A stretch of DNA of 64,000 nt from NCBI GenBank assembly GCA_001784175.1, contig MFPR01000020.1, forward strand, positions 1 through 64,000, read 5' to 3'. The translations under genes and the position numbers were made by a program. The notes below the pieces were generated by a model. It worked only from the letters and a program-made list of their open reading frames with translations, was not told the DNA's origin and did no database searches. Positions 13,146 through 32,854 of this stretch are shown here, one piece after another. Origin of the DNA: Candidatus Lindowbacteria bacterium RIFCSPLOWO2_12_FULL_62_27 (lineage in GTDB: Bacteria; Lindowbacteria; 2-12-FULL-62-27). Position 1 is the first letter of the stretch; each line of letters opens with the position of its first letter.

Positions 13146-13915
13146 GGCGTCACATACCCCTTCCCCTCGCCGGCGTCGATCGGAACCAGGCATCCGCCCA
13201 TCATGGAGGCGGCGTCGGAACAGAGAAGCATGACGAGCGGGATCAGTTCCTCGGCCTTTCCCAAAAATCCCCGCGGCAGCCGCTCCGCGACAAACCGGCT
13301 GACCACCTCCGGGCTCTTCGACTCCAGGCGCATCCACGAATTACCGGGCGCATAAAACCCGCCCGGCAAAATTCCGGTCACCACAATCCCGCTCGGCGCC
13401 AGCTCCCGGCCCAGGGACCGCACATAGGCGGCGAGCGCCGACTTGACGGTGTTGTATCCCACCGACGCGGTCGCTTCGCTGGAGGCGATGGAGCCTACGT
13501 GGACCAGGTTACCGGATTTTTTCTCGACCATGCCCGGCGCCACCCGGCGGTTGATTTCCGTCGCGACGAGGACGTTCAGCGTAAACAGTTTTAAAAAATC
13601 AGAGGAAGACAGAAGCGGTTCCCGCAGCCCCAGACCGCCGCCCGCCACGTGCAGCACCACGTCGATGCCGCCCAAAAACGATTTCGCCTGATCGACCGCC
13701 GCCCCAAGCCGGTCGAAATCGGTCAAATCGACGGGCAAGCACGCGTGCCGCTCGGGGCGCGCGCACGAATCCCGCACCTTTGCGAGATCCGCTTCCGTCC
13801 TCGCCATGAGCGCCAGCGAGGCGCCGGCGCCTGCCAGGGCGCGTGCGCACACGGAGCCGAGCCCCCGGGACGCGCCGGTCACGAGGATGCGCTTGTCCTG
13901 CACGCCGGTCGACAT
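13142..13915 (-). CDS. short-chain dehydrogenase/reductase
   Basis: Classical SDR of 257 residues. The cofactor loop TGASRGLG spans residues 13-20. The active site is Ser142 in HVGSIASSEA with Tyr154 and Lys158 (YNTVK). The segment LHVAGGGLG replaces the usual NNAG, with Gly for the structural Asn. The C-terminal block DAASMMGGCLVPIDAGEG is as in 3-oxoacyl-ACP-reductase-like SDRs that make a final beta strand. Such enzymes interconvert an alcohol and a ketone on sugars, acyl chains or polyketides. It overlaps the methyltransferase start by 4 bases and lies 2 bases after the DJ-1 gene. Together with the MDR enzyme it gives the operon two distinct dehydrogenases. Confidence 0.9.
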   Translation of the reverse strand: MSTGVQDKRILVTGASRGLGSVCARALAGAGASLALMARTEADLAKVRDSCARPERHACLPVDLTDFDRLGAAVDQAKSFLGGIDVVLHVAGGGLGLREPLLSSSDFLKLFTLNVLVATEINRRVAPGMVEKKSGNLVHVGSIASSEATASVGYNTVKSALAAYVRSLGRELAPSGIVVTGILPGGFYAPGNSWMRLESKSPEVVSRFVAERLPRGFLGKAEELIPLVMLLCSDAASMMGGCLVPIDAGEGKGYVTP

Positions 13916-13917
13916 GC

Positions 13918-14433
13918 CTATCCGCGCGCCTTCAGGACCTGCAGGGTTGCTTTCATGAAATCGCCGTTGTTGCGGTAGTGCGGCGCCGTCACGAGATTGC
14001 CGTCGACGACCACGTTCTGATCCAAGTAGGTGGCGCCGGCGTTGCGAATATCGTCGGCGATTGACTGATACCCCGTCGCCCGCCGGCCTTTGAGAATGCC
14101 CGCCGAAACGCAAATCCAAGGCCCGTGACAGATGGCCGCCACGACTTTGCCGCTGTCGTACATCTCCTTCACGAATTGGAGGACTTCCTTCCGGAGCCTC
14201 AACCGGTCCGGCGCCTCAAAGCCGCCGGGCAAAATCACGAGATCGTAGTCGGCCGCCTTGAGGTCCCGAGTATCGACCGTGGGCCGGGCGGGCACGCCAT
14301 ACTTGCCGAACACAGCCGCCTTGTCGGGCGTCGCCACCTCCACCGCGATGCCCTCTTCGAGCAGGCGGTAATAGGGGTAGGTGAATTCCTCGTCCTGAAA
14401 ATTCTGCGCGGTAATGATCACGGCTTTTTTCAT
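13918..14433 (-). CDS. DJ-1/PfpI family protein
   Basis: A 171-residue flavodoxin-like protein of the DJ-1/PfpI superfamily. The nucleophile elbow is AICHGPW with C102 and H103, and the conserved Glu is E15 in NFQDEEF. The oxyanion segment LVILPGGFEAPD is intact. Members of the family are reported as amidases, chaperones, glyoxalases or hydratases, so the active site is clear but the reaction is not. Within the operon it sits 13 bases after the HAD gene and 2 bases before the SDR gene, so it is likely to act on a pathway intermediate or to remove a reactive carbonyl by-product. No signal peptide. Confidence 0.9.
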   Translation of the reverse strand: MKKAVIITAQNFQDEEFTYPYYRLLEEGIAVEVATPDKAAVFGKYGVPARPTVDTRDLKAADYDLVILPGGFEAPDRLRLRKEVLQFVKEMYDSGKVVAAICHGPWICVSAGILKGRRATGYQSIADDIRNAGATYLDQNVVVDGNLVTAPHYRNNGDFMKATLQVLKARG

Positions 14434-14446
14434 CGGAAAATGACTA

Positions 14447-15106
14447 TCACAAGGCCGGCGGCGGCGTCAAATCCGTGAAATCGTCAAACCACGGAACGCC
14501 TCCGATGATTCGCCAATCGACCATGCCGGAATTGCGCCCGACGAAATCGATGCCGACCGCGCGCGCGGCGGTGAGGTCGTTGAGCGTGTCGCCAATAAAC
14601 ACGCATTCACGGGCCTGCCACTTCTGTGTCCCCAGGAGCCGCTGCAGATTTTCCTCCTTGCGCGCCGGCGAGCCGAGGATTTCGGCGAAATAACCGCGGA
14701 GGCCTCTGGCTTGGCACACCGATCGCAGTTCCTCCTGGTCCGACCCCGAGACGATAGCGAATCGGCCCGGGCGGTGGAACCGCGCCAAAAACTCGATTGA
14801 TCCTTTCACCGCTTCAGCTTCGATGACGCGGCGCTTCACCAGATCCGAATAACGCGCAGACCACTCCACCACCTTTTCTTCCGACACCGGCTCGCCTATG
14901 AGTTCCTTGAAAAAATACCGGATCTTTTCATACCGCGACATTCCCCCATTCGCCTCCGCGTATCGCACCATCGCATCGACTTTGGATTCCGGGAACCCCT
15001 GAAACAGCAATCGGAACCCGTCGACACGAATCGGGTTCGTGTCGGCGAGGACGCCGTCGAAATCGAAAATCAGGCGCGGATACCGCAGGATGTCAGGCGG
15101 CGGCAT
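14447..15106 (-). CDS. HAD-superfamily phosphatase
   Basis: Haloacid-dehalogenase-fold hydrolase of 219 residues, subfamily IA. Motif I is IFDFDGVLADTN with nucleophile D15 and acid/base D17. Motif II is AIVSGSDQEEL, motif III is the Lys in PARKEEN, and motif IV is CVFIGDTLNDLTAARAVGI. The helical cap lies between residues about 25 and 85. Such enzymes dephosphorylate sugar phosphates, phosphoglycolate and similar small metabolites. The start ATG at 15106 lies inside the end of the enolase-superfamily gene (14 base overlap), so translation is probably coupled. The substrate is not visible from sequence, but a phosphatase in this operon implies a phosphorylated intermediate. Confidence 0.9.
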   Translation of the reverse strand: MPPPDILRYPRLIFDFDGVLADTNPIRVDGFRLLFQGFPESKVDAMVRYAEANGGMSRYEKIRYFFKELIGEPVSEEKVVEWSARYSDLVKRRVIEAEAVKGSIEFLARFHRPGRFAIVSGSDQEELRSVCQARGLRGYFAEILGSPARKEENLQRLLGTQKWQARECVFIGDTLNDLTAARAVGIDFVGRNSGMVDWRIIGGVPWFDDFTDLTPPPAL

Positions 15107-16214
15107 GCGCGAACTTGCGGAGAACGTCGGCCGGCAGATGAACGCCAAGTCCCGGCCGGGTCGGCACGCGGACAAATCCGCGCTCCATCTTCAAGGGCTC
15201 TTCCAAAAGCTCGTGATAAACGGCGTTTTCGGAACAGTCGAACTCGAGCCACGAGGTGTTCGGCGTGGCGGCCATGAGGTGGAGCGTGGCGGCGAGGAGG
15301 ATACCGGAAGAGAAATTGTGCGGCGACACGCGGACGCCATACTCTTCCGCGAGGCCGCAAATCTTTTTCGTTTCGAGAATCCCACCCGCGCGCCCGATGT
15401 CCGGCATGGCCACGTCCACGGCGCGCAAATCGAAAAGCTGTTTGAATCCGTGGACGCAGAATTCGTTTTCGCCGGCCGCAAGCGCCATGCGCGTCCCGCG
15501 CCGCACCTCGACCAGGGCCTCCGCGGGGTCGGGCCGCACGGGTTCTTCCAGCCAGTAAATATCGAACGGCTCCCAGAGCTGCGCGGCGCGAATGGCATCC
15601 TGAGCAGAGTAGCCAGCGTTGAGATCGATCATGAGTTTCACGCCGACCCCGACCGCCTCCCGGAGGCTCCGCACCCGTATCGTCTCCTCCTCTGGCGGCC
15701 GGCATCCGATGTGCGCCTTGACGGCGCCGAATCCCCTGCGAACGATCTGTTCCGCGCGATCCGCCATCCTCGCCGGGTCCTCTTCCCAGTAGACGTCACT
15801 CGCGTACGCCTCGATCCGGTCCCGGGCCGGGGCCGAATCTTCGGCGGCAAGAAGCCGATGAACCGGCGCGCCGAGGGCCTTGCCTTTGATGTCCCAGCAG
15901 GCCATCTCGATGGCGCTGAACGCGCAGATCGCCGATCCCTTTCGTTCAAAGTAAACGTACGGCTCCATCAGCCTCTGCCGGATTCCCTCGATGTCGGTGG
16001 GATCCAAACCGACCGCGCGGGCCGCAAGATCGGCCTCGAGAATCGCCCGAATCACCGCGGCCTGGCCAACGCCCTCTCCCAAGCCGATCAGTCCCTCATC
16101 CGTGTGAACCTGCACGATCGCGTGCCGCCGAACATCAAATCCCCCGCGGGAAATCCGCATGGAGGAGGTCAGCCGGTTCTCGAGCAGGAATGTCCGGACT
16201 TCCGTGATTTTCAC
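15093..16214 (-). CDS. enolase-superfamily enzyme, mandelate-racemase subgroup
   Basis: A 373-residue enzyme that should abstract the proton next to a carboxylate of a sugar acid or hydroxy acid and then dehydrate or racemise it. Metal ligands are D197 (LMIDLNAGY), E223 (WLEEP) and E249 (AAGENEF). The lysine motif on strand 2 is K166-x-H168 (VKAHIG), not the KxK of mandelate racemase. The opposite-face dyad D272 (MPDIGRAGG) and H299 (VSPHNFSSG) is that of the mandelate racemase subgroup. The capping domain is residues 1-110. First gene of the six-gene operon; divergent from the cupin-ThDP gene with 73 bases between starts. Acid sugar dehydratase is the most likely activity; the exact substrate cannot be read. 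Confidence 0.9.
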   Translation of the reverse strand: MKITEVRTFLLENRLTSSMRISRGGFDVRRHAIVQVHTDEGLIGLGEGVGQAAVIRAILEADLAARAVGLDPTDIEGIRQRLMEPYVYFERKGSAICAFSAIEMACWDIKGKALGAPVHRLLAAEDSAPARDRIEAYASDVYWEEDPARMADRAEQIVRRGFGAVKAHIGCRPPEEETIRVRSLREAVGVGVKLMIDLNAGYSAQDAIRAAQLWEPFDIYWLEEPVRPDPAEALVEVRRGTRMALAAGENEFCVHGFKQLFDLRAVDVAMPDIGRAGGILETKKICGLAEEYGVRVSPHNFSSGILLAATLHLMAATPNTSWLEFDCSENAVYHELLEEPLKMERGFVRVPTRPGLGVHLPADVLRKFAHAAA

Positions 16215-20700: not shown

Positions 20701-20773
20701 GTCCTCGTCGTCTAGGGGCCCAGGACACCGCCCTTTCACGGCGGTAACACGGGTTCAAATCCCGTCGAGGACG
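20701..20773 (+). tRNA. tRNA-Glu (anticodon TTC)
   Basis: A 73-base cloverleaf. The acceptor stem GTCCTCG pairs with CGAGGAC, the anticodon stem CCGCC pairs with GGCGG around loop CTTTCAC (anticodon TTC), and the T arm is ACGGG-TTCAAAT-CCCGT. G73 is the discriminator and CCA is not encoded. It begins 24 bases after the ThDP enzyme gene. Its 3' half overlaps the end of the antisense recF gene. Confidence 0.95.
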
Positions 20774-21852
20774 CTGTTCTTCAGATCGATCCGCTGACGG
20801 ACCGCCGCGAGCAAATCCATCGGCGGCGGAAGACACGTCGTCACGAGGGCCTGGCCGGCGTACGGAGTCAGAAAGGCCGTCACCGCCGCGCGGCGTTCCT
20901 CGTCCAGCTCGGAAAACAAATCATCAAACAGCAGGATGGGAAGCGACACACGGGAGAGACGTGCGGCCTCGATGCACTTGAGGGCCAGCGAGAGAATTCG
21001 GATCTCACCCTGGGAAAGCGTTTCCTGCGCCGGCAGATTCACATCCATCATGAGCACGTCGTCGCGGTGCGGTCCCACCGTCGTGTGGCCCGCCGCCCGG
21101 TCCTGCGCCCGATGGGAGATCAGCGCGCCGAGCAAGTCCTCCGCGGCCGTCTCCTGGATGCGGAGCCGGGTCCGCCCGGCCAGATGGGCGGCGCCGAGAG
21201 AGGCAAGCCTATCGGGCAGCGCGGCTTGGACTTCCTCGATCAATTTCCTGCGCCCAGACATGATTTCACCGCCGTCGCCGGCAAGCGTTTCGTCATACGC
21301 CAGTAGGGCGTGTTCGTCGAGTACCGATGAACCCGCTGCGCGCAGGAACGCGTTTCGATCCTCGAGCGCGCGTGTGTAGCGCCGGAGCCTGGAAAGGTAC
21401 TCCGGATTTTCCTGGGCCAGAATCCTGTCCATCCATTTCCTCCGCCGGGCCGGCTCGCCTGTGACCATCCGCATTTCCTCGGCCGAAAACAGGACGACCG
21501 GCGGCCGGCCGATCAGATCGCTTCTTCGAACAGGCCGGCCGTCCTCGTGAAACACGAGGGCCGACCCTGCCAAAAACGCAACGGACCGGACTTTGGGTTC
21601 GCCGGCGGCTCGCTCGACCTCAACGCGGAAATAAGGCGATCCACCGGTTCGGCACAGGAGAGACAACACTCGAATATCCCGCGCCGGCCGGCCGAGACAC
21701 AGGAGATACACCGACTCCAGGAGTGTGGACTTGCCGGAACCGTTGGGCCCCGAAATCAGCGTGAGGCCGGACTCGGCCAGCGTTACTTCGGCCTTTGCGA
21801 ATCTCCTGAAATTTTCGAGCGTGAGGCGGACAAAACTGTTGGCGGGTGTCAA
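20755..21852 (-). CDS. recF: DNA replication and repair protein RecF
   Basis: SMC-like ABC ATPase that helps load RecA at gaps. Walker A is SGPNGSGKST (about residue 37), the ABC signature is LSQGEIRILSLALK, and Walker B is PILLFDDLFSELD. RecF landmarks FSAEEMRMVTGEPARRRKWMD and TTVGPHRDDV are present. Length 365 residues is normal. The start is taken as the TTG that overlaps the dnaN stop (TTGA); no ATG or GTG is available before the conserved N-terminus VRLTLENFRRF. The last six codons and stop lie inside the antisense tRNA-Glu. The dnaA-dnaN-recF order is the ancestral origin-proximal arrangement. Confidence 0.95.
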   Translation of the reverse strand: MTPANSFVRLTLENFRRFAKAEVTLAESGLTLISGPNGSGKSTLLESVYLLCLGRPARDIRVLSLLCRTGGSPYFRVEVERAAGEPKVRSVAFLAGSALVFHEDGRPVRRSDLIGRPPVVLFSAEEMRMVTGEPARRRKWMDRILAQENPEYLSRLRRYTRALEDRNAFLRAAGSSVLDEHALLAYDETLAGDGGEIMSGRRKLIEEVQAALPDRLASLGAAHLAGRTRLRIQETAAEDLLGALISHRAQDRAAGHTTVGPHRDDVLMMDVNLPAQETLSQGEIRILSLALKCIEAARLSRVSLPILLFDDLFSELDEERRAAVTAFLTPYAGQALVTTCLPPPMDLLAAVRQRIDLKNSVLDGI

Positions 21853-22967
21853 GCGATGCGCATGGGCATGATGACGTGGAGATGCGAGTTGTCGTCCGGC
21901 GTGCGGAACACGCACGGATTTTTGGGCGTGATAACCCTGACCTGTACCTCCGGAGTCTCGATCTGGGAGATGGCATCCAGGCAGTAATTGACGTTGAAAG
22001 CCAGCTCCATGGGGCTGCCGGAGTATTTCAAGCCGAGGGTCGCGTCGCCGCTGCCGCGGTCCTGGGAGGCCGCGGATATTTTCAGGGAGTTCGGCTCCAG
22101 CTTGAAGAGCACCCGGGGATTCTGGACGTCGGTGAAAACCGACACCAGCCGGAGGGCTTGCGTCAGTTCCGTCACGTCGACCAGGAAATTGGTTTCGAAT
22201 TCCTTCGGGATCACCTGCGCATAATTCGGAAATTTTTCCGCAATGAGCTGGGTCTGCAGCGTCAACCCGTCCATGGAAAACAGGGCCACGCGCTCGGTGA
22301 ACGTCAGAGACACGGACGAGTCGTCGTCCGGGAGGCACCGGATCAGTTCCTGGCAGCTCCGGATCGGCACAAGAAACTCGCGCTTCTGGAATTTGCCGTC
22401 GACGCCGATCCGCACAAACGCCAGGCGGTGACTGTCGGTCGAAACCAGTTTGAGGTCCGCGCCCTCGAGATCAAAGAGAACCCCCGTCAAATACCGCCGG
22501 CTGTCCTCCACCGCCGCGGCCACCACGGTGCGTTTGAGACCTCCCAGAAGCTCTTTGGCGGACACGGAGAGCTTGACCTCGCCCTCGAGTTTCGCGGCTT
22601 TGGGGAAATCATCCTTCGACAGCACCGGAATACTGCCGGAAAATTTCTGTTTTCCCACCGCCGTCACATGGATCTGTCCCTTTTGAATGTCGCCGGACAG
22701 CACGAGCGACGCCTCGGGATCGGCGAGACGACTGACGAGATCGCCGAGCGTTTTGGCAGGAATGGCCACATCGGCCTTGTCGGCCACCGCGGAATTCAAA
22801 GCGACCGTGATGCGAAGATCCAGGTTGGTCCCGGTCAGGCGGCTCTTGCCGTCCCGGGCCTCCAAGAGAAGGTTCGTGAGAATCGGCAGAGGTGTCTGTT
22901 CGTCGACCGCACCACGAACTTTTTGCAGGGCATGCGCAAGGGACTCTTTGGTAAACTGGGCTTTCAT
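21849..22967 (-). CDS. dnaN: DNA polymerase III beta sliding clamp
   Basis: Ring-shaped processivity clamp, 372 residues in three repeated domains of about 120. It begins MKAQFTKESLAHALQKV and has the typical TPLPILTNLLLEA and GTNLDLRI blocks. The C-terminus HVIMPMRIA matches the conserved clamp ending that forms the partner-binding pocket (PMR). The ATG at 22967 is preceded by AAAAGGAGATAACC, a strong ribosome site. Its stop overlaps the recF start. The 210-base gap to dnaA upstream contains a long AT-rich palindrome, which may govern its separate expression. Confidence 0.97.
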   Translation of the reverse strand: MKAQFTKESLAHALQKVRGAVDEQTPLPILTNLLLEARDGKSRLTGTNLDLRITVALNSAVADKADVAIPAKTLGDLVSRLADPEASLVLSGDIQKGQIHVTAVGKQKFSGSIPVLSKDDFPKAAKLEGEVKLSVSAKELLGGLKRTVVAAAVEDSRRYLTGVLFDLEGADLKLVSTDSHRLAFVRIGVDGKFQKREFLVPIRSCQELIRCLPDDDSSVSLTFTERVALFSMDGLTLQTQLIAEKFPNYAQVIPKEFETNFLVDVTELTQALRLVSVFTDVQNPRVLFKLEPNSLKISAASQDRGSGDATLGLKYSGSPMELAFNVNYCLDAISQIETPEVQVRVITPKNPCVFRTPDDNSHLHVIMPMRIA

Positions 22968-23177
22968 CGGTTATCTCCTTTTATATATATAATAATAGTG
23001 TTTTTAATAATTATAAACACTATTATTATTATGTCCCGTGGATATGTGGGAAACCGTAAAACCTTCTGAACGCCAGCGCAAAGCCGAAATCAGTTCCTGT
23101 GGGCCGTTGCGCACAGAATCCTCAATTCACACGACGTGTGCAAAACGGGCCACCGTGCGTCGACACCCTCTGCACCA
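22968..23177. other. dnaA-dnaN intergenic region, AT-rich
   Basis: The dnaN-proximal 60 bases are almost pure A+T and hold the palindrome at 22989-23029. The dnaA-proximal part contains only weak matches to the DnaA box (for example around 23039-23053 on the minus strand, two mismatches each). No open reading frame of note. In bipartite origins the unwinding element lies in this gap, so it may be part of oriC; it may equally be the dnaN promoter region. Confidence 0.6.
22989..23029. repeat. 41-base AT-rich palindrome upstream of dnaN
   Basis: Bases 22989-23003 and 23015-23029 are perfect reverse complements (15 bases, core AGTGTTT/AAACACT). Inside, TAAT-A-ATTA (23005-23013) continues the dyad after one T-T mismatch, so 40 of 41 bases form an almost complete dyad centred on 23009. 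It is far too AT-rich for a standard terminator and has no adjoining T-run beyond its own composition. It lies 22 bases before the dnaN start. Confidence 0.85.
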
Positions 23178-24524
23178 TCAGTGCACACCCAGTTCTTTCA
23201 TGAGATTGTCCAGCGTTCTCATCGTCTGCGGATTCTGGGCCGCTTCCGCTTCGATCTTCTCCACCGCGTGGATCACCGTGGTGTGGTCGCGGTCACCGAA
23301 GGCGTCTCCGATCGACTGGAGTGAGTAGTCGGTGAGCTTGCGGATCAGATACATGGCCATCATGCGGGGATAGGCGATGTTGTGCGTGCGGCGCTTGGAT
23401 TTCAGCTCGTCCACCGAGACCTTGAAATATCCCGAGATGCAGCCGGTGATGCCGTCCGGCGTGAGGATGTTTCTGCGCCGGACCACAATGTCCCGCAGCA
23501 TTTCGCGGGCGAGATCCAGCGTCATCTCCTGTTTCATGATCCTGCTGCGCGCGGCCACGCGCGTGAGAGACCCTTCGAGTTCCCGGATATTGGTGCGGAC
23601 ATTTTCCGCGATGAATTCGAGGACATCCTTTCGAACCGGCAGATTCTCCCGCTGGGCCTTGTCCATGAGAATGGCGACGCGCGTTTCATAATCGGGCGGC
23701 TGAATGTCGGCCGTGAGGCCCCACTCAAACCGGCTCCGTAGCCGCTCCTCGATGTCGAGAATGTCCTTCGGCGGCCGGTCGGAGGAGAGGACGATGTGTT
23801 TGCGCGCGCTGTGAAGTTCATTAAAGGTATGGAAAATTTCTTCCTGGATGGCGTCCTTGCCTGAGATGAAATGGACATCGTCCAGTAGAAGGATGTCCAT
23901 GTTCCGGTACTTGTATCGAAAGGCCGTGGTGCTCCTGCCGCGGACCGCCGCGACGTATTCGTTCGTGAATTGCTCCGACGTGATGTAGCACACCACGGCC
24001 TGGGGCGACCGGCGCTTGATGAAATGCCCGATGGCGTGCATCAGGTGCGTCTTGCCCAGACCCACGCCGCCATAGAGGAAAAGCGGATTGTAAATTTCGC
24101 CGGGCGATTCGGAAACCGCGAGGGCGGCGGCGTGCGCGAAATTGTTGCTCTTGCCGACGACAAACCGGTCGAAGGTGTATTTGTGATTGAGGTTGCTGCC
24201 GGTGAAACTGAACTCGAGGTTGGCCGGCGTTTCCTCCTGCGGTCCGGTTTCCTCCTCCGCCACAGGTCCTGCGGACATGGACCGGTTCACGCGGATGTCG
24301 ACTTTCACGGCGGCCCCGGCCAGTTCGCTCAGCGTATCGGAAATTTTCGGAATGAATTCCGCCAGCCGTTTCCGGTAGATCGCGCTGGGAACCTCCAGCA
24401 CGTAGTGGGAATCAGAATCGGATTTGAACTCTGTGTTCTTGACCCAGATGTCAAACAGATGCTCCGGGATGTGAGTGCGCAGTACGCCCAAAAGCTTATC
24501 CTGCTCAATTAGATGCGTCGGCAT
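23178..24524 (-). CDS. dnaA: chromosomal replication initiator DnaA
   Basis: AAA+ initiator that binds DnaA boxes and melts oriC. Domain I (1-85) begins with [20 protein letters not shown]. Domain III has Walker [16 protein letters not shown], Walker [14 protein letters not shown] and sensor segments ([21 protein letters not shown]). Domain IV carries the DNA-binding signature [16 protein letters not shown]. Length 448 residues is normal. The ATG at 24524 has AGAGGGG about 8 bases upstream. Upstream lies the candidate origin with two perfect DnaA boxes, so the gene is likely autoregulated by DnaA. Confidence 0.98.
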
Positions 24525-24557
24525 TATTTCCCCTCTTTCCTTGCAGATAAACCCCGT

Positions 24558-24566
24558 TTATCCACA
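24558..24566 (+). promoter_or_regulatory. DnaA box
   Basis: TTATCCACA, identical to the strong consensus, 34 bases upstream of the dnaA start codon. Confidence 0.85.
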
Positions 24567-24613
24567 CTTTCAACGATAATTTCCACAATCTATCCCAACC
24601 CTTTTTCCAGCGG

Positions 24614-24622
24614 TTATCCACA
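24614..24622 (+). promoter_or_regulatory. DnaA box
   Basis: Second perfect TTATCCACA in the same orientation, inside the candidate origin. Confidence 0.85.
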
Positions 24623-24769
24623 GTTTATACACCCAATGATGCACATATTCTACACACTGAAACATAAGCACTTATGATATTGGGTTCTTATACCAGCGCG
24701 AGGTTTTCCACGCAAGTGTTTTTTTGAAATTCTCGGCATTTTCTCAACAACAAATTAGATTTCACTTGT

Positions 24770-25969
24770 TTATGTCGCGCCCAGCGCTTCCATCGGCTCC
24801 GTCAGAAGCGTGAGGACCGCCGTGTGATTCAGAATGGCCGAACGAACTTTTCGTCCGTCCCAGTGAATCGGGCCGATTTCGGCGAACCCGAAAAGGCCGG
24901 CGACGGGAAGTTCCGGGAAGAACTCGCGATAGGCGTCGAGATCGACATGAGGCCGGCCGTAAAGGGACAGTCCGCGCGCGCAGCAGTTGAAGATCACCGT
25001 CGCTCGTGGCGCCCGGCCGCTGAGGCCGCCGCTCAATCGTTCCAGCATCTGCCGGAACGTGCGCCTCGACCCTCTGGCGCTCCGGACGCCGAAACAGATG
25101 AATTGTCCTGCGCGGACCGGTTCCGCGACGGAGACATGCTGGGTGGCCAGCTCGACAGCGAGAATGCTTCGCACGATATATCGGCCTGCGATGTAATCCT
25201 TGAGGGAATCCGCGAGCGCGCAGAAGATGTCGATGCGGTCCTGCTGTGGGTGGGCTTTCCGCTGTTCCTGGACGAACGCCGCGAGGACGTCGGCGGCCGG
25301 TTCGTGGTCGATCTGCGCGATCCGGTTGTCCGATGCGCTCGTGATCGGCCGCGGCTCGGATTCTGGAAGGACGGCGTGGGCGACCCCGATGGAAGCCTCG
25401 ACGCAGCCGGCGAGGTGCAGTGCGGCGCAACCGTGGTGGGAGGATTCGCCGTCGGCCGCGATCGTGGCCACCTGGCTTTCGGCGGACCACCCGGCGGCGG
25501 CGCCGACGACGGGTGTTTCGGGAAAGGCGTGGGCCATGCGGGAAAGAAACCCGGGATGCAGGCTTCGCGGGTCCGCCGTCAGGAACAGGACGCCGCGTTC
25601 CCGATAGAGACTCGGCAGTTCCCCCCGCAGGTGCTGGACGGCGTCGGACCGCAGATCGGGCGCCATGGCGGCCCCCGCGGTGACGCGGTCGGAGGACATC
25701 AGGAGGATCGACAGGCCCGGCTCGCTTTCGACCTCGCCCCGCGGACCGATGATGCCGGCGCCGGTCGCGCCGAAGAGCGCCCGGATATGAATCTTGCTTC
25801 GAAGAAAATCCAGGATTTCCTGAAAGGATTTCGAATGATGGCTTGTGCCGAAGACCCACGCGGCGGTCGCCGCCGGTTCAGGCAAGGGCTGGACCGCCTC
25901 GCCGAGGGCCTCGGCCGCCGCCGCCTTCGAATCCGGGTTCAAACTCATGCCTGCGCCGGTGTGGATCAT
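24770..25969 (-). CDS. FIST-domain sensory protein
   Basis: A stand-alone FIST protein of 399 residues. The FIST-N part has FGATGAGIIGPRGEVE and the FIST-C part ends with the diagnostic run VIFNCCARGLSLYGRP, AYREFFPELPVAGLFGFAEIGP and LNHTAVLTLLTEP. FIST domains are proposed small-ligand (possibly amino acid) sensors usually attached to histidine kinases, cyclases or methyl-accepting proteins. Here no output domain is present, and the next genes upstream are Ser/Thr kinases on the same strand, 54 bases away. A TATAAT sequence (minus strand, 25976-25981) lies only 6 bases before the ATG used here, so either the message is nearly leaderless or translation begins at the next Met (25948). Confidence 0.9.
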   Translation of the reverse strand: MIHTGAGMSLNPDSKAAAAEALGEAVQPLPEPAATAAWVFGTSHHSKSFQEILDFLRSKIHIRALFGATGAGIIGPRGEVESEPGLSILLMSSDRVTAGAAMAPDLRSDAVQHLRGELPSLYRERGVLFLTADPRSLHPGFLSRMAHAFPETPVVGAAAGWSAESQVATIAADGESSHHGCAALHLAGCVEASIGVAHAVLPESEPRPITSASDNRIAQIDHEPAADVLAAFVQEQRKAHPQQDRIDIFCALADSLKDYIAGRYIVRSILAVELATQHVSVAEPVRAGQFICFGVRSARGSRRTFRQMLERLSGGLSGRAPRATVIFNCCARGLSLYGRPHVDLDAYREFFPELPVAGLFGFAEIGPIHWDGRKVRSAILNHTAVLTLLTEPMEALGAT

Positions 25970-26023: not shown

Positions 26024-27598
26024 TCACTTTGGGACATTTCCCTTGAGCGCCATCAAAATGGATGTGCGCAGGCGCCCGAATTCGTCGTCCGACATGACCG
26101 GCGCCGCGCCGTCAAGGGAGATTTCCTCCTGCATATGGATCCAGTTGCGCCCTCTCATCTTCGGCACGTGAATGAGGGCGGGCAGGCGATAGACGCGCAG
26201 GACGGAGGCATACATCGGATTGCGGTACTTGCGGGACTCGCTTAACGCAAAGTCCACCGTGTAGGGCATGAAGGGTCCGATTCGGACGATTTCTTCCGGA
26301 CCCACTTCGACGTTTTCAACGGAGAGCGCCACATATCGAATCGGCACCCGATCGCCGGTCCACGCCGGAACGCGCGGCGCCACCTCCGGCTTGAGCGCAT
26401 CGTCGGCCAAACCGTCCCGGTGCGGCACCAGCAGGAACGCCTTCCCGGTCTTGATGCCGCCGGCGACGGCACGCAGACTGAGCGCGGTTCGGCCCCCGCC
26501 GAACGACTCGACCATGCGGTGATCGAAGAGATGGCCGACGGAGGTTTTGTCGGGAAGAGTTTCGTCTTTCACCGTGCCATCCGGCGACGGTGCGGACGCA
26601 TCGTCGGATTCGACCTCGGTCCCGGTTCCACGCCCTACGAACCAGGCTCCGCCTGCGGCGAGGGCGAACAGAATCCCGGCGGCGATGAGGACGGCCTTAT
26701 TGGATTTGACGCCGGCCGGCGCGTTGGACGAAACATCCGAGCGAAGGATGTCCACCGGCGCGCCGGCCGCGCCCGACAAGTCCTCGATCACGTGAACGGC
26801 CGACCGGTATCGCTTGCACAAATCCCGCTGGAGACATTTTTGCAGGATGCTGTCAGACAGCGCCGAGAGTTTCGCGTTCAGGTTTCGCGCGGGCGGCGGC
26901 GCGTACGATGGATTCAGAATCCGGGCGATCACCACGGTCGCGGACTCGCCGTCGAAGGGCCGCCGGCCCGTCGCGATCTGGTAGCCGATCACGCCCAGGG
27001 ACCAGAGGTCCGCCGGCTCGCGCACGTCTTTCGACGACTGGATCTGTTCCGGCGCCGAATAGTGCGGCGTGCCGAGAACTTCGCCCGTCACCGTGAAGTG
27101 CGATTCGCTGACCATGGCCGAAAGACCGAAATCCGTGATCCGGATGCCGCCGTTTGGCATCACCACCACGTTGCCCTCCGTCAGATCCCTGTGCAGAATC
27201 CCCTGCTGATGAGCCGCCAGGAGCGCCCGGCAGATTTCGCCGAACATCGCGCGCCAGGTTTCGTCGTCCGGAAGTTCCGTGCGTTCGGCGAGCCAGGCCC
27301 GAAGGTTCTTGCCCTCCAGCCATTCCATCGCAAGATAATAGCGTCCGGCGTCGATGCCGAATTCGTAAACCTTGGGAATCGCTTCGTGCGACAGCGTCAT
27401 GCCGATCCGCGCCTCGCGCTTGAACCGCTCCACAAACGCCTCCTGCTTGCCGAAGGCCGCCGGCAGAAGTTTCACCGCCACCGGCTTGCCGTCCTCCGGG
27501 TCCTCCGCCCGGTACACCGAGCCCATCCCCCCCGCCGCCACCAGCGAGACGATCCGGTACCGGCCGATCCGGTCCGGGGTTGATGGGTGGGCCGTCAT
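26024..27598 (-). CDS. transmembrane Ser/Thr protein kinase (third kinase of operon)
   Basis: 524 residues. The cytoplasmic kinase domain (11-275) has the Gly loop AAGGMGSVYRAE, VAVK lysine K43, catalytic loop HRDLTEGN (D138, N143), DFG at D156 and the activation segment ending GTPHYSAPEQ. The lysine usual after HRD-L is Thr. One transmembrane helix (301-321) leads to an extracytoplasmic domain of about 200 residues (for example HLFDHRMVESFGGGRTAL, RIGPFMPYTVDFAL) with no family I recognise. The start ATG overlaps the stop of the preceding zinc-ribbon gene (ATGA), which fixes it. PknB-like enzymes phosphorylate target proteins on Ser/Thr in response to outside ligands; here the sensor domain differs from PASTA. 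Last gene of a four-gene operon; the FIST gene follows. Confidence 0.92.
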   Translation of the reverse strand: MTAHPSTPDRIGRYRIVSLVAAGGMGSVYRAEDPEDGKPVAVKLLPAAFGKQEAFVERFKREARIGMTLSHEAIPKVYEFGIDAGRYYLAMEWLEGKNLRAWLAERTELPDDETWRAMFGEICRALLAAHQQGILHRDLTEGNVVVMPNGGIRITDFGLSAMVSESHFTVTGEVLGTPHYSAPEQIQSSKDVREPADLWSLGVIGYQIATGRRPFDGESATVVIARILNPSYAPPPARNLNAKLSALSDSILQKCLQRDLCKRYRSAVHVIEDLSGAAGAPVDILRSDVSSNAPAGVKSNKAVLIAAGILFALAAGGAWFVGRGTGTEVESDDASAPSPDGTVKDETLPDKTSVGHLFDHRMVESFGGGRTALSLRAVAGGIKTGKAFLLVPHRDGLADDALKPEVAPRVPAWTGDRVPIRYVALSVENVEVGPEEIVRIGPFMPYTVDFALSESRKYRNPMYASVLRVYRLPALIHVPKMRGRNWIHMQEEISLDGAAPVMSDDEFGRLRTSILMALKGNVPK

Positions 27599-28350
27599 TT
27601 CAGCAGATGAAATGCGTTTTTGTAGGGCGTAAGATCGAGATCCCATTCTCCGCTCCGCAGGATTGGGCGATTCCCGGCCGACACGATGTTGACAGAGCGG
27701 GTGGCTCTCCCCCCCAGAGATGTAAACGTCTCAATGCGATCCGGCGAGAGAATATCTCCCGGAATCACGAAAATGTCCCGAGACTCTTCATCATCGACGA
27801 CCACAAAATAGGGTCCCAAGTCCGCAATCGCGCGGGCGACGATCGGACTTAAACTGATACGATGGCGGATCCCCAATGACCGAATCGTCGTGCGATACAG
27901 GTAACAGTTTCTGTCACGGACCTTATATGTCCTCGCCGATCCGGGTATTCCAGAGAGAATCCGGTCCATCTTGACATTGAACTTCGCCCCAAAGAGCAGA
28001 TCATCCTCCGACATTTCTCTCATCTTATATGCCGGGGTTTCCTGCCCGGCGTCGGAGACGCCGGCACTTGGGGCCGCGGAGCGGCTGACCCGTCCGGCGG
28101 CGATTCCGGATGCGAGGGGAATGACGAGAAGAACCCAGACGGCCGCGGGCAACCGGCGCCGCGCCACCGACATGCGCGCCAGGGCCGGGCGCCATTCCAC
28201 ATTTTTTAAATCTCCCGTGCGCCACGCGCCGCAAGACGGACAGGCTCGCCCGGATTCGGCCGCCATGTGTCCGCAGGCGGGGCAGGCAACGGCCACCCCG
28301 CTCTCGTCCGTCCGTGGACTTTGCGGGATTCCCTCCGTCCGTCCGGTCAT
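27595..28350 (-). CDS. zinc-ribbon membrane protein with the shared kinase C-terminal domain
   Basis: 251 residues with no kinase domain. An N-terminal zinc ribbon (C23, C26, C37, C40; VACPACGHMA, ACPSCGAW) is followed by one transmembrane helix (67-87) and an extracytoplasmic domain (115-251). That domain is colinear with the end of the neighbouring kinase: FGAKFNVKMDRI, RTYKVRDRNCYLYR, FVVVDDEESRDIFVIPGDIL and the ending DLTPYKNAFHLLK. It looks like a duplicate of that kinase whose catalytic domain was replaced by a zinc ribbon. Residues about 93-102 are encoded by a 29-base palindromic repeat found elsewhere in the window. ATGA overlaps join it to the kinases on both sides. Function unknown; a decoy or co-receptor for the same ligand is plausible. 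Confidence 0.85.
   Translation of the reverse strand: MTGRTEGIPQSPRTDESGVAVACPACGHMAAESGRACPSCGAWRTGDLKNVEWRPALARMSVARRRLPAAVWVLLVIPLASGIAAGRVSRSAAPSAGVSDAGQETPAYKMREMSEDDLLFGAKFNVKMDRILSGIPGSARTYKVRDRNCYLYRTTIRSLGIRHRISLSPIVARAIADLGPYFVVVDDEESRDIFVIPGDILSPDRIETFTSLGGRATRSVNIVSAGNRPILRSGEWDLDLTPYKNAFHLLK
28046..28074 (+). repeat. 29-base dispersed palindromic element, copy 1
   Basis: Begins with the hairpin CCGGCGTC-GGA-GACGCCGG and continues ACTTGGGGC (split here: total 28 to 29 bases including the joining bases). It is identical to bases 63231-63259 in the same orientation. This copy lies inside the zinc-ribbon membrane protein gene and keeps its reading frame. Confidence 0.85.
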
Positions 28351-30032
28351 TTCAGGAGATGGAACGCATTTTTGTAGGGCGTAAGGTCGAGTTCCCATTC
28401 GCCGCTTTGCAAGAGCGCACTCTTTCCACCAGAACGGACTGTCGCATACCTGGTAGAACTTGTAGTATTCGCCCGGACAAATTTTTCCATTGTTTCCGTC
28501 GACAAAATGTTCCCGGGGATCACAAAAACTTCATCGAGGTCATCCGTTTCGACAACCAGGAACCAAGGACCCAACTTGTCCATGAGCCGTGGGAGGGCTG
28601 GATTTAAATAGACCTTCATTCGCCTCACACGTTCTGCAGATGCGGCATACAGGTAATATTTGCCGCCCTGGACCTCATATGTTCTCGCGTGCGTACCTGT
28701 TCTTCCTCCCACGCGAATTCTCTCGATCTTGAGATTCAGCTTCGCCGCCCACGGCAACGCGTCGTCCGCCGCCTGCTTTGTTGATATGGCCGGCGCGTCC
28801 ACTTCATCCCGTTGGTCATCCTCATCTGCAAGCTGGGACTCCGGCGCGTATGCCCTTTGCCCGCCCCCCGTGACGGAGACCCACCCGATGGGCGCGCCGG
28901 CGGCGAAGGCGGCGAGGGAGGCGATGAGCGCGATGGCGACCCGGCGAAGGCTCACGAAACCGCCGCCGGGGTCCGGCGCGGGGCGGGAGGACGAAAGAGC
29001 GTAGGTGCGGCCGCCGATCTCGGCTTCGATCACTCCCCGGCGGCCGATCTTGCCGGACCGTACGACCTGGCCGACCGCCCCTCGCGGAGGCGGGTGTCCG
29101 CCCGCCGCATGATGATGGCAGGCGATCTGCGCGTGATAAAAGACTTCGCCCGGAATGTAGGCGCGGTCTGACCGGTAGGCGAACGCCTGCGGAATCGGGT
29201 CGTCAGAGTCCAGGTCTCGCAAGAGATCCGCACATGATCCGTATCGGCCGGCCGGCTCGCGGCAGAGGCACCGCATGACGATCAGATCCAGTTTCTGGGA
29301 TACGCCGTCTTTGACCTCCGACGGAAATTTGATGTGGTAGCTGGGATTGAGCAGCGTCGCGGTAATGGATGCGATGTTCCGTGCCTCATAGGGCGTCCGG
29401 CCGGCCAGGATTTCGTAGGCGATGACGCCGATCGACCAGAGGTCCGACCGGGCGTCGATGGCGGCGCGGGACTCGAACTGCTCGGGGGCCATGTAGGCGG
29501 GCGTGCCGAAGTGTTGGCCGGTCATGGTGAGGGTCGCCTCGTCGACGAGTTTGGAGATGCCGAAATCGACGAGCTTGATGCCGGTTGCGCCGTTGACGAT
29601 GACGTTTTTCGGTGAAATATCCCGGTGGATGATTCCAACGCCGTGCGCGTACGACAGAATTCCCGCAAGATCCCGGATAACCCTCACCGCCAGGTCAGGC
29701 CCGCCGGAGGGAGGGTGAGCCAGGACCCATTCGAGTGACCGGCCCTCGAGAAATTCCATGACGACGTATCGGCGGCCGTCCACCTCTCCGTCGTCGATGT
29801 GCCGGGGGATGCCGGGATGATTCAGTTTTCGCAGCGACGCGCATTCCCGCTTGAACCGCTCCCGGAACCTCTCGTTCTTCGACAGATGCTGCGGCAGAAC
29901 TTTGAGCGCCACGGGCGGGCCGCCCTGCGGGGATTCGGCCAGATATACGTTGCCCATGCCCCCGTGGCCGACCTCCCGGATGATCCTGAAAGGCCCGAAA
30001 AATTCGACGCTTGGCGCGGGAGGCGGCGTCAT
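28347..30032 (-). CDS. transmembrane Ser/Thr protein kinase with shared C-terminal domain
   Basis: 561 residues. Kinase domain 12-275: Gly loop VGHGGMGNVYLAE, K44 in VALK, HRDISPKN (D138, N143), DFG at D156, and APEQF in the activation segment. A linker with a His-rich patch (about 300-313) leads to one transmembrane helix (365-387). The extracytoplasmic domain (423-561) ends DLTPYKNAFHLLK and is colinear with that of the next gene. The kinase domain is strongly similar to the HhH kinase upstream, down to long identical DNA stretches (compare 29517-29580 with 32314-32380), so the two arose by tandem duplication. Start and stop both overlap neighbours (ATGA). It probably senses an envelope signal; substrate proteins unknown. 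Confidence 0.93.
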   Translation of the reverse strand: MTPPPAPSVEFFGPFRIIREVGHGGMGNVYLAESPQGGPPVALKVLPQHLSKNERFRERFKRECASLRKLNHPGIPRHIDDGEVDGRRYVVMEFLEGRSLEWVLAHPPSGGPDLAVRVIRDLAGILSYAHGVGIIHRDISPKNVIVNGATGIKLVDFGISKLVDEATLTMTGQHFGTPAYMAPEQFESRAAIDARSDLWSIGVIAYEILAGRTPYEARNIASITATLLNPSYHIKFPSEVKDGVSQKLDLIVMRCLCREPAGRYGSCADLLRDLDSDDPIPQAFAYRSDRAYIPGEVFYHAQIACHHHAAGGHPPPRGAVGQVVRSGKIGRRGVIEAEIGGRTYALSSSRPAPDPGGGFVSLRRVAIALIASLAAFAAGAPIGWVSVTGGGQRAYAPESQLADEDDQRDEVDAPAISTKQAADDALPWAAKLNLKIERIRVGGRTGTHARTYEVQGGKYYLYAASAERVRRMKVYLNPALPRLMDKLGPWFLVVETDDLDEVFVIPGNILSTETMEKFVRANTTSSTRYATVRSGGKSALLQSGEWELDLTPYKNAFHLLK

Positions 30033-32854
30033 CGGACGGTCAGGAAATCCTTCAGGATCTTCATGCGCATTTCGACGCCGGCGCCGGCATCCAGAAACGG
30101 GCGAAGTTCGTCGACCGATCGAAATTTGCGGGACTTGCGTGCCTTCAGAATACCGGATATCTCTCCGCGTCCGATATAGGGAATTCCCTTGAACCGGGCC
30201 TCCGGCAGAGTGTGGACGTCCTGCGGCTCGCCCCACAGGCTCAGGAATTCCAAGTCAACCGTCACGGTCCGATCGCCCGGTTTGACGTAGAGCGCCTTCC
30301 GATATCGGGCAAGGCGTTCCCCCGCCGGTTCTGATTTGGGATTGTACTGCAATGGCTCAATCACCCCGCGAATAAACTCCTCCACATCCCCAAACGCCCC
30401 CCGGCGGTGGCGGTGCATCATGATCAGGAGCGGATCCCGCCACGTTCGGAGCAGGCCTGTCAAATCCGAGAGTGAGGCATGATTCAGATCCAGCCGTTCC
30501 GCAACCGACGTGACGACGATGAAATCTTTCAACAGATTCAGCCGGATTTTGGGATCCCAGGATGCGTCCAGCAGCGGCAGAAGGTCTTGAAATGATCGGA
30601 ACGCCCGCCTCTCACGGACGCGCCAGACAGCCGTTTTTTCGTGCCCTTTCAAAAGAGGCAGGTTGTGGATCTGATCAAAGGACGCGGTGTTCAGATTGAC
30701 GGGTTCATTCCACATCCGCAGAAACTCCGGATCAACGGTCACCGTCGCGTCTCCCGGGGCAACCATAAGGATGTCCCGGTATCGTTTGACCTGTTCTTGA
30801 ACCGTTTCCCTATGGGGCTTGTAGCCGACCGGCAAAAGAATGCCGTTGATATATTCATCGACGCTCCGGAACGCTCCGTGACGGTGGCGGTGCATCATGA
30901 TGAGCATCGCGTCCCGGTCGCGGCCTTTGCCGAAGGCGCCAATCAGCTCTTCGAGCGAGGCGTGATTCAAGTCGACCCGGGCGCGCCTGGAAAGTCGGGA
31001 GGAAGCCAGTTGTTCGGCATAAAATTTGTCGACGGCCTGCTTGTAGGTGCGGTCGAGCGTTTCGTTGCCGAGAGTTATAAAATCCAGCCACACCACTTCC
31101 TTGCGCCTCTCATATCCCGCCGAGGGTCCGCTTGCGGCTTTCAGCACGTCGTCCAGGCTGCGAAGCGTTCCTCCATGGGCGCGGTACTGCACGATATCTC
31201 CGGCAGTGCTTGATCCAATAAAGGGCACGGTCGCGAGTTCTTCCGACGATGCGCGGTTGATGTCGATCCGCCGGTATCGTTTGAGAAATTCGTCGTCGGC
31301 CGGCGCGGCCGCATGGGACTCAACTTTCAACTGGTGACGGTAGTTCTGGATGGCATAGTATCTCATCCCGGCGAGGATCGCCCCCGCGTCATCCATATTC
31401 TTGAAAGCCCCATGATTGTGACGGTAGGCCAGCAGAGACATGGCGCAGTTGTCGCTCAGGCCTTTGATCCTGACCAGGTCTGAAAATTTCGCCGTGTTGA
31501 GGTCGACGACGAGGTCGGCGTCTTTTATGTGTTGAGTTGTCGGGGTCGACGATTTTTGAATCGCCCCGATGCGGGAAGGCGCCGGCGTGACATGAGGTGA
31601 CCGGCTCCAGAAGATCGCCCCCGCGATCAACGCGACGGGGAGGGCCGACCATGCGACGGCTTTGAGCAGGCGCCGCCGTCGCGCGTGCCGGCCGGACTGC
31701 GATCGGGAGCGCGTCACGCGGCAGAGGGATTCGGCTCCGGCCGCGATCAGGCCGCATGCCGGACAGGCCTGGCCGCCGGCCAGTCCGTGCCCGCATTCGG
31801 CGCATGGGGTGTTGTTGTCCGTTTCGGTCTCCGCTGGCGCCGCGGTCAGGCGGCGGCTGTGGCTGGCGCCGTGGTGGATCAGTCCCACGAACCTCCGCCT
31901 TCCCAGCTTTCCCGCCTCATCCACGACCGCCCAACGACGGGCATGGGGCAGGTAAACCAGGTCGTCCAGTTGATAGATCCGCCGAGGATCGTACGTTTCA
32001 TCCGGCGCCGGCCGGCTGAGGGCCTCGATGACGGCGGTTGCGGAGGGGAATCGGTATCGGGGATTTTTTTGGAGCAAACGATCGACGACGGCCGCCAAGG
32101 CCGGGGGAATGTCCGGATTCAGGTCGAGTACGGCGGGCGGCGACAGGTTGGGATTCCCTAATTTCTGAATGACGACGATATTATCCCCTTCGAATGGGGT
32201 CCGGCCGGTCAGCGCATGAAAGGCCACCGCGCCCATCGACCAGAGGTCCGACAGCTCCGGATGGACGCCGGCGGTCCCAAACTGTTCCGGGGCCATGAAG
32301 GAGGGCGTGCCGAAGTGCTGGCCGGTCATGGTGAGCGTGGCTTCGTCGACGAGTTTGGAGATGCCGAAATCGACGAGCCTGATTTGGGATGCGTCGTCCA
32401 CAATGACGTTCCTCGGGGAAATGTCGCGGTGGATGACGCCCATGCCGTGCGCATAAGAAAGAATCCCCGCAAGCTCCCGGATGAGTCGCGCGGCCAGGTC
32501 AGGCCCGCCGGAGGGGTGCGCCAGAACCCATTCGAGGGACCGGCCCTCGAAAAATTCCATGACGACGTATCTGCGGCCGTCCACCTCTCCGTCGTCGATG
32601 TGCCGTGGGATTCCGGGATGGTTCAGCTTCCGAAGCGACGCGCACTCCCGGTTAAAGCGCTCCCGGAATTGATCGTTCTTCGACAGATGCTGCGGCATGA
32701 CCTTGACCGCCACGGGCGCCCCGCCCATCGGGGATTCAGCCAGATAGACATTCCCCATGCCCCCGTGACCGATCTCCCGGATGATCCTGAAATCTCCGAA
32801 AAATTCGGCGCCTTCCAGCATGGAAGGCCAGTGAAACAGATCAGCCGGGGGCAT
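30029..32854 (-). CDS. transmembrane Ser/Thr kinase with six ComEA-like helix-hairpin-helix units
   Basis: 941 residues. Kinase domain 20-285 (IGHGGMGNVYLAE, K51, HRDISPRN with D144, DFG 162-164, FMAPEQF). A zinc ribbon follows (C351, C354, C364, C367: CAECGHG, CPACG), then one transmembrane helix (about 397-416). The outside part holds six helix-hairpin-helix units at about 449-511, 528-588, 626-692, 718-780, 786-852 and 878-941, each with the ComEA/T2SK pattern of LN-A-S then PxIG and R..GxFRSxDEL (LATVPFIGSSTAGDIVQYR; FKGIPYIGRGEISGILKAR). Units 3-4 and 5-6 form two copies of a 155-residue repeat. First gene of the operon. ComEA units bind DNA, so a DNA-sensing kinase is possible (inference). 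The start could also be the Met at 32821. Confidence 0.92.
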   Translation of the reverse strand: MPPADLFHWPSMLEGAEFFGDFRIIREIGHGGMGNVYLAESPMGGAPVAVKVMPQHLSKNDQFRERFNRECASLRKLNHPGIPRHIDDGEVDGRRYVVMEFFEGRSLEWVLAHPSGGPDLAARLIRELAGILSYAHGMGVIHRDISPRNVIVDDASQIRLVDFGISKLVDEATLTMTGQHFGTPSFMAPEQFGTAGVHPELSDLWSMGAVAFHALTGRTPFEGDNIVVIQKLGNPNLSPPAVLDLNPDIPPALAAVVDRLLQKNPRYRFPSATAVIEALSRPAPDETYDPRRIYQLDDLVYLPHARRWAVVDEAGKLGRRRFVGLIHHGASHSRRLTAAPAETETDNNTPCAECGHGLAGGQACPACGLIAAGAESLCRVTRSRSQSGRHARRRRLLKAVAWSALPVALIAGAIFWSRSPHVTPAPSRIGAIQKSSTPTTQHIKDADLVVDLNTAKFSDLVRIKGLSDNCAMSLLAYRHNHGAFKNMDDAGAILAGMRYYAIQNYRHQLKVESHAAAPADDEFLKRYRRIDINRASSEELATVPFIGSSTAGDIVQYRAHGGTLRSLDDVLKAASGPSAGYERRKEVVWLDFITLGNETLDRTYKQAVDKFYAEQLASSRLSRRARVDLNHASLEELIGAFGKGRDRDAMLIMMHRHRHGAFRSVDEYINGILLPVGYKPHRETVQEQVKRYRDILMVAPGDATVTVDPEFLRMWNEPVNLNTASFDQIHNLPLLKGHEKTAVWRVRERRAFRSFQDLLPLLDASWDPKIRLNLLKDFIVVTSVAERLDLNHASLSDLTGLLRTWRDPLLIMMHRHRRGAFGDVEEFIRGVIEPLQYNPKSEPAGERLARYRKALYVKPGDRTVTVDLEFLSLWGEPQDVHTLPEARFKGIPYIGRGEISGILKARKSRKFRSVDELRPFLDAGAGVEMRMKILKDFLTVR

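What the first reader, a model, noticed from the sequence alone, without database searches (positions are those of the whole stretch)
30029..32854. Receptor kinase with six extracytoplasmic ComEA-like helix-hairpin-helix units
HhH units of this type bind DNA in competence protein ComEA. Here six of them, arranged as two single units plus two copies of a 155-residue pair, lie on the far side of the membrane from a Ser/Thr kinase. I know of no described kinase with this layout. It could report extracellular DNA, or the HhH fold may have been reused to bind another ligand.
Basis: partly seen in the sequence, partly recalled or inferred. Interest (0 to 1): 0.8.

Follow-up and report, generated by a model that had tools for sequence, protein, structure and literature searches.

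The report
Receptor kinases with ComEA-type ectodomains
A little-known bacterium carries at least eight membrane kinases whose outer part is built from a domain that DNA-uptake proteins use to grip DNA; in the one flagged here the domain is repeated six times but has lost most of its DNA-gripping loops, so it probably senses something else.

Summary
The gene (minus strand, 941 aa) encodes a Ser/Thr kinase with catalytic motifs intact, a zinc-ribbon-like Cys4 motif, one predicted transmembrane helix and six ComEA-type helix-hairpin-helix (HhH) domains beyond it. AlphaFold models six ComEA-like folds. The six are better read as three homologous pairs.

It is not a singleton. The genome has at least eight kinases with HhH ectodomains and two kinase-less ones. 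The long paired form was found in this genome only, in a phylum with three genomes held. A simple founder, kinase plus TM plus one nearly canonical ComEA domain, also occurs in a sister genus, about 2.4 kb from a ComEC/ComEA cluster; in the window's genome it follows a PP2C phosphatase gene. The flagged gene starts a four-gene operon with ATGA overlaps; two operon mates carry an ectodomain that models as a PD-(D/E)XK nuclease-like fold.

DNA sensing remains possible for the founder. In the flagged protein, at least eleven of twelve hairpins have lost GxG, and the lysine pair needed for DNA binding in V. cholerae ComEA is absent. Best explanation: a receptor kinase using amplified ComEA-derived domains to bind an envelope protein or other non-canonical ligand. 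Ligand and activity are untested.

The parts
30029..32854 (-). HhH receptor kinase P0001, 941 aa
   Evidence: ORF; Pkinase 2.1e-40 and HHH_3 4.7e-32; TIGR00426 over cut-off
32045..32788 (-). Ser/Thr kinase domain, residues 23-270; VAVK, HRDISPRN, DFG and APE present
   Evidence: Pfam; motif scan; coordinates
31853..31978 (-). conserved juxtamembrane segment, residues 293-334 (YxLDDxVYLP..RWAVVDE..G), shared by the paralogues with a zinc-ribbon-like motif
   Evidence: read from sequences; function unknown; coordinates
31745..31804 (-). Cys4 zinc-ribbon-like motif, residues 351-370, predicted cytoplasmic
   Evidence: CxxC...CxxC in sequence; DZR only E 0.58, below cut-off
31613..31669 (-). predicted transmembrane helix, residues 396-414, preceded by RHARRRR
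   Evidence: hydropathy and flanking charge
30983..31513 (-). HhH pair A (units 1 and 2), residues 448-624
   Evidence: unit alignment; homology to pair B 29% identity, z 11
30500..30982 (-). HhH pair B (units 3 and 4), residues 625-785
   Evidence: model
30032..30499 (-). HhH pair C (units 5 and 6), residues 786-941; duplicate of pair B (45% identity, z 33)
   Evidence: model
28347..30032 (-). operon mate P0002: kinase with the closest kinase domain to P0001 (67% over 13-284), TM, and an ectodomain that models as a PD-(D/E)XK nuclease-like fold
   Evidence: ATGA overlap with the P0001 stop
27595..28350 (-). operon mate P0003: zinc-ribbon-like motif, TM and the same ectodomain as P0002, no kinase
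   Evidence: ATGA overlap
26024..27598 (-). operon mate P0004: kinase, TM and DUF1802 ectodomain (8.3e-10)
   Evidence: ATGA overlap

Best explanation
P0001 is a single-pass receptor Ser/Thr kinase. Its ectodomain is three tandem pairs of ComEA-derived HhH domains. The likely origin is a simple kinase-TM-ComEA receptor, still present in this genome and in a sister genus near DNA-uptake genes, whose outer domain was paired, amplified and moved between kinase genes in this genus. The amplified domains kept the fold but lost most DNA-gripping hairpins, so I think the multivalent ectodomain binds an envelope protein (possibly its own kinase-less HhH or operon partners, or part of the uptake or pilus machinery) or another non-canonical ligand. 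Binding would bring kinases together and start trans-autophosphorylation. Shown by computation: domains, predicted topology, paralogue family, operon overlaps, loss of hairpins. Inferred: ancestry by domain movement, ligand class, dimerisation, kinase activity, all downstream steps.
For: Domain hits and topology; ComEA-like fold. Foldseek's lower-ranked matches include the extracytoplasmic HhH-type proteins PsbU (8j5k, 7n8o) and the T2SS pseudopilin GspK/XcpX (6utu, 9a1f), which from general knowledge work by protein contacts; these matches have E above 1. Hairpins lost in nearly all units, while GxG and the lysine pair matter for V. cholerae ComEA (PMC3879209). ComE1 of Pasteurella binds the protein fibronectin as well as DNA through the same motifs (PMC2601033). 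Family: P0005-P0011 and kinase-less P0012, P0013. The duplicated pair differs: last pair in P0001, first pair in P0007. Kinase tree puts P0001 with P0002 (100/100), not with P0005-P0007 that share its ectodomain, and P0011's HhH ectodomain sits on a DUF1802-class kinase.
Against: No ligand, activity or localisation data. The ectodomain is basic (pI 9.4), and unit 6 and its counterparts carry +4 to +5 in all four long paralogues, which could suit a polyanion; but TPR ectodomains of other kinases here also have pI 8.6-8.8. Operon mates carry a nuclease-like fold, which keeps DNA in play. pTM of the model is only 0.42, so the overall shape is unknown. The tree pattern could also be gene conversion between the neighbouring P0001 and P0002 kinase domains.
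Confidence: 0.5

Rival explanations
1. P0001 is an extracytoplasmic DNA receptor: the six HhH domains bind double-stranded DNA in the periplasm non-canonically, and DNA bridging of receptors activates the kinase.
For: ComEA homology; basic ectodomain; founder-type relative near ComEC and ComEA in G002; ComEC, standalone ComEA-like proteins and DprA in this genome; operon mates with a nuclease-like fold; HhH proteins bind DNA mostly through backbone nitrogens (PMC9747964), so side-chain loss is not fatal; B. subtilis YabT shows a bacterial Hanks kinase can be DNA-activated (PMC3708118).
Against: GxG hairpins and the lysine pair are gone in nearly all units. P0001 itself lies between dnaA/dnaN and the mreB/PBP2 genes, not by competence genes.
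Confidence: 0.3
2. The HhH array is an oligomerisation or scaffolding module that assembles receptor complexes with P0002-P0004 or the kinase-less HhH proteins, with no diffusible ligand of its own.
For: Operon with ATGA overlaps; a similar gene set in the C33 cluster; kinase-less partners with the same kinds of ectodomain P0003, P0012, P0013.
Against: ComEA's own oligomerisation domain is a separate domain, not the HhH part (PMC9747964). No interaction data.
Confidence: 0.15
3. The pairs are degenerating domains under weak constraint, a by-product of tandem duplication in a kinase-rich genome.
For: Divergent hairpins; copy number varies between paralogues.
Against: Long open frames, intact kinase motifs, and a shared linker and C-terminal end across four paralogues at 39-45% ectodomain identity.
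Confidence: 0.05

Closest known systems
PknB/PrkC/StkP PASTA receptor kinases
   Same: N-terminal Hanks kinase, one TM, repeated small ectodomains; founder P0008 follows a Stp1-type PP2C gene as such kinases often do.
   Different: No PASTA domain; ectodomain is ComEA-type HhH. PASTA in this family of genomes sits in a 324-365 aa ORF that is not one of the listed kinase hits.
ComEA (DNA receptor of natural transformation)
   Same: Same extracytoplasmic HhH domain, VNIN start and ITV end.
   Different: Fused to a kinase, repeated six times, canonical hairpins and Lys pair lost in P0001.
Pasteurellaceae ComE1
   Same: ComEA-type HhH that binds a protein as well as DNA (PMC2601033).
   Different: Small secreted protein, two HhH motifs, no kinase.
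Bacillus subtilis YabT
   Same: Transmembrane Hanks kinase regulated by DNA (PMC3708118).
   Different: Its DNA-binding region is cytosolic Lys/Arg-rich sequence; it has no ectodomain.
E. coli YegI-type HhH kinases (from memory, not verified here)
   Same: Kinase linked to HhH.
   Different: I recall the HhH as non-ComEA and not extracytoplasmic; my searches returned nothing useful.

Membership tests
Hanks-type receptor Ser/Thr kinase | Protein kinase domain with catalytic Lys, HRD Asp and DFG | tested here: met
   Pkinase 2.1e-40; VAVK, HRDISPRN, DFG, APE
Hanks-type receptor Ser/Thr kinase | Single TM separating kinase from ectodomain | tested here: met
   Hydropathy and positive-inside charge only; no dedicated topology predictor was available
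Hanks-type receptor Ser/Thr kinase | Phosphorylation activity | not testable with these tools
   needs protein
PASTA kinase (PknB/Stk1) | PASTA repeats; NF033483 over its cut-off | tested here: not met
   216.9 bits against 450, kinase part only
ComEA | ComEA HhH repeat domain (TIGR00426) | tested here: met
   64.7 bits, cut-off 53.1
ComEA | Whole-protein comE model TIGR01259 | tested here: not met
   99.5 bits, cut-off 152.35
ComEA | GxG hairpins and lysine pair used for DNA binding | tested here: not met
   compared with residues in PMC3879209
ComEA | DNA binding and role in transformation | not testable with these tools
   needs experiment
T2SS pseudopilin GspK | T2SSK domain | tested here: inconclusive
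   PF03934 26.4 bits, cut-off 24.2, overlapping better HHH_3 hits; NF037980 not listed for P0001
T2SS pseudopilin GspK | N-terminal pseudopilin helix | tested here: not met
   N terminus is the kinase domain

The most novel reading that the evidence does not exclude
A periplasmic nucleic-acid-sensing kinase network: ComEA-type receptor kinases, together with kinases and kinase-less partners bearing catalytically degenerate nuclease-fold ectodomains, report DNA arriving in the periplasm, with PP2C phosphatase and FHA/cyclase outputs, in a phylum that also carries several ComEC genes.
Probability: 0.25. Interest if true: 0.85.

Novelty: new variant of a known kind. Interest (0 to 1): 0.6.

Why it matters
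Receptor kinases with known outer parts mostly carry PASTA, propeller or similar folds. A ComEA-derived ectodomain, with its simple form beside the DNA-uptake channel gene in a sister genus, would link DNA uptake to protein phosphorylation and gives a direct test of whether incoming DNA is sensed across the membrane. The amplified forms show how a DNA-binding fold can be turned into a modular receptor.

Tried and rejected
PADLOC defence matches (PD-T4-6, mad6): generic kinase-domain matches, rejected. PHROGs: kinase only. Plasmids: the 12 best rows listed cover only the kinase part of P0008 and none of 1006 records covers 80%; the ComEA part matches only 16 records, mostly ComEA-like where annotated. 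Viral contigs: none. Four genome-contig hits of the ectodomain were weak; the two I opened are non-kinase HhH proteins, a Bacteroidales 309-aa protein and a Solirubrobacterales 572-aa protein; the other two were not opened. Basic charge of the ectodomain as DNA evidence: rejected as weak because unrelated ectodomains here are basic too. Pfam failed on a wrong frame and was redone. The organism could not be named: handles are anonymous.

Full report
Observation. The ORF lies on the minus strand, 30029-32854, 941 aa. Pfam gives Pkinase 2.1e-40 (23-270) and HHH_3 4.7e-32 with four stretches; NCBIfam gives the ComEA HhH repeat region TIGR00426 at 64.7 bits, above its cut-off of 53.1, and the whole-protein comE model below its cut-off. 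Kinase motifs VAVK, HRDISPRN, DFG and APE are present. A Cys4 motif at 351-370 looks like a zinc ribbon but DZR is only E 0.58. The best hydrophobic segment is 396-414 with an Arg-rich N side, so the HhH part is predicted outside. I had no dedicated topology predictor.

Anatomy. Six units begin near 448, 528, 625, 717, 786 and 876. Pair A (units 1-2) is homologous to pairs B and C (29% and 26% identity, z 11 and 7), and B and C are 45% identical, z 33. So the ectodomain is three pairs. AlphaFold2 on a four-row alignment gives pLDDT 79.7 and pTM 0.42, with six strand-helices-strand repeats. Foldseek's best PDB match is Geobacillus ComEA (prob 0.97, E 0.14); weaker ones include PsbU, GspK/XcpX, Tex and KIF22, all with E above 1. 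Sequence search of the PDB also finds ComEA (8dss, 1.2e-7; 8dfk, 1.5e-6) and an endonuclease/exonuclease/phosphatase protein with ComEA-like HhH domains (9yi2, 4.4e-14).

Hairpins. In V. cholerae ComEA the GIG hairpin and Lys62/63 are needed for DNA binding (PMC3879209). In P0001 only unit 3 reads G-K-G in the first hairpin, in a gapped region, and no second hairpin has GxG; the lysine pair positions read NC in unit 1 and ST in unit 2, and no unit has KK. P0008 keeps both GxG hairpins; its G002 orthologue keeps the first, with GIK in the second. ComEA-type HhH domains can bind protein: Pasteurella ComE1 binds fibronectin through the same motifs it uses for DNA (PMC2601033).

Family. The window's genome (4.39 Mb, 44 contigs, 94% complete) has 34 HHH_3 matches. 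By reading the stretches I count eight kinases with HhH ectodomains: P0001; P0005 and P0006 (two pairs each); P0007 (three pairs); P0009, P0010 and P0011 (two units); P0008 (one ComEA domain); and two kinase-less Zn-TM-HhH proteins, P0012 and P0013. P0007 has its first pair duplicated, P0001 its last. The kinase tree joins P0001 to P0002 (100/100) and P0011 to the DUF1802 kinases (100/100); the P0005, P0006 and P0007 kinases, which share P0001's ectodomain, branch apart from it. Domain exchange or gene conversion explains this; I cannot separate them.

Distribution. The phylum has three genomes held, one family. The long ectodomain (A1) matches this genome only, 1 of 3; the two others are 81% and 88% complete. 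Four genome-contig loci matched weakly and the two I opened are not kinases. A full-length search with P0008 and its orthologue over 290 genomes, scoring at most six candidates in each, listed matches through the HhH part only in G000 and G002.

Context of the simple form. In G002 the orthologue (L056:8928-10151) lies near an MBL-fold gene (11493), a two-domain ComEA-like gene (12526) and ComEC (13236-16157, PF03772 2.6e-34), with an FHA-GAF-cyclase gene at 4106-5788. In G000 P0008 follows a kinase gene and a Stp1-type PP2C gene. G000 has ComEC-domain matches in four open frames, two of them near standalone ComEA-like genes, DprA and Omp85 (so a diderm envelope is likely). I infer a capacity for DNA uptake; it is not proven.

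Operon. P0001, P0002, P0003 and P0004 overlap by ATGA at all three junctions. The ectodomain shared by P0002 and P0003 models at pLDDT 70, pTM 0.67, and Foldseek returns PD-(D/E)XK proteins first: I-Ssp6803I (prob 0.99, E 0.02), DpnI, Hjc, D212, SPARDA. No E-value passes 0.001, so this is a lead. By eye the catalytic strand reads YLY in this genome and FIK in the G002 row, so catalysis looks unlikely; I did not test this further. A related gene set (P0002-like, P0003-like, P0004-like, P0011) lies in C33.

Interpretation. The fold, predicted topology and family are well supported. That the ligand is a protein or other non-DNA molecule is my inference from hairpin loss and precedents; I put it at 0.5, against 0.3 for DNA.

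Literature. The search covers open-licence PMC papers only. It returned no kinase with ComEA-type ectodomains. The Hanks-kinase review I searched has no mention of hairpin domains or ComEA (PMC6213207).

Noticed in passing
window 28347-30032 and 27595-28350: Ectodomain shared by P0002 and kinase-less P0003 models as a PD-(D/E)XK nuclease-like fold with no evident catalytic triad.
   Followed up: partly
window 26024-27598; L031:13491-15332; L032:865-3513: Kinases with predicted extracytoplasmic DUF1802 domains (8.3e-10 to 7.4e-25); a literature search for DUF1802 returned a single soil-ecology paper.
   Followed up: partly
window 30029-32854 and paralogues: The usual catalytic-loop Lys of HRDLKxxN is Ser or Thr in most of these kinases (HRDISPRN, HRDVSPRN, HRDLTxGN), with R or K just before the Asn in many.
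   Followed up: no
L056:1-19000 (G002): ComEC, two ComEA-like proteins with two HhH domains each, three kinases and an FHA-GAF-cyclase in one 13-kb stretch.
   Followed up: partly
G000 contigs C2, C26, C28, C33: ComEC-domain matches in four separate open frames in one genome.
   Followed up: no
L058:680-2674 (G001): A PknB-class kinase whose ectodomain reads like OB folds by eye; Pfam found nothing there.
   Followed up: no
window 20755-25969: dnaA, dnaN and an SMC/RecF-like gene, and a FIST-domain gene just downstream of the kinase operon.
   Followed up: no
L042:227-3034; L043:3922-6654: Two related kinases from the same kinase clade with long ectodomains that read as TPR repeats.
   Followed up: no
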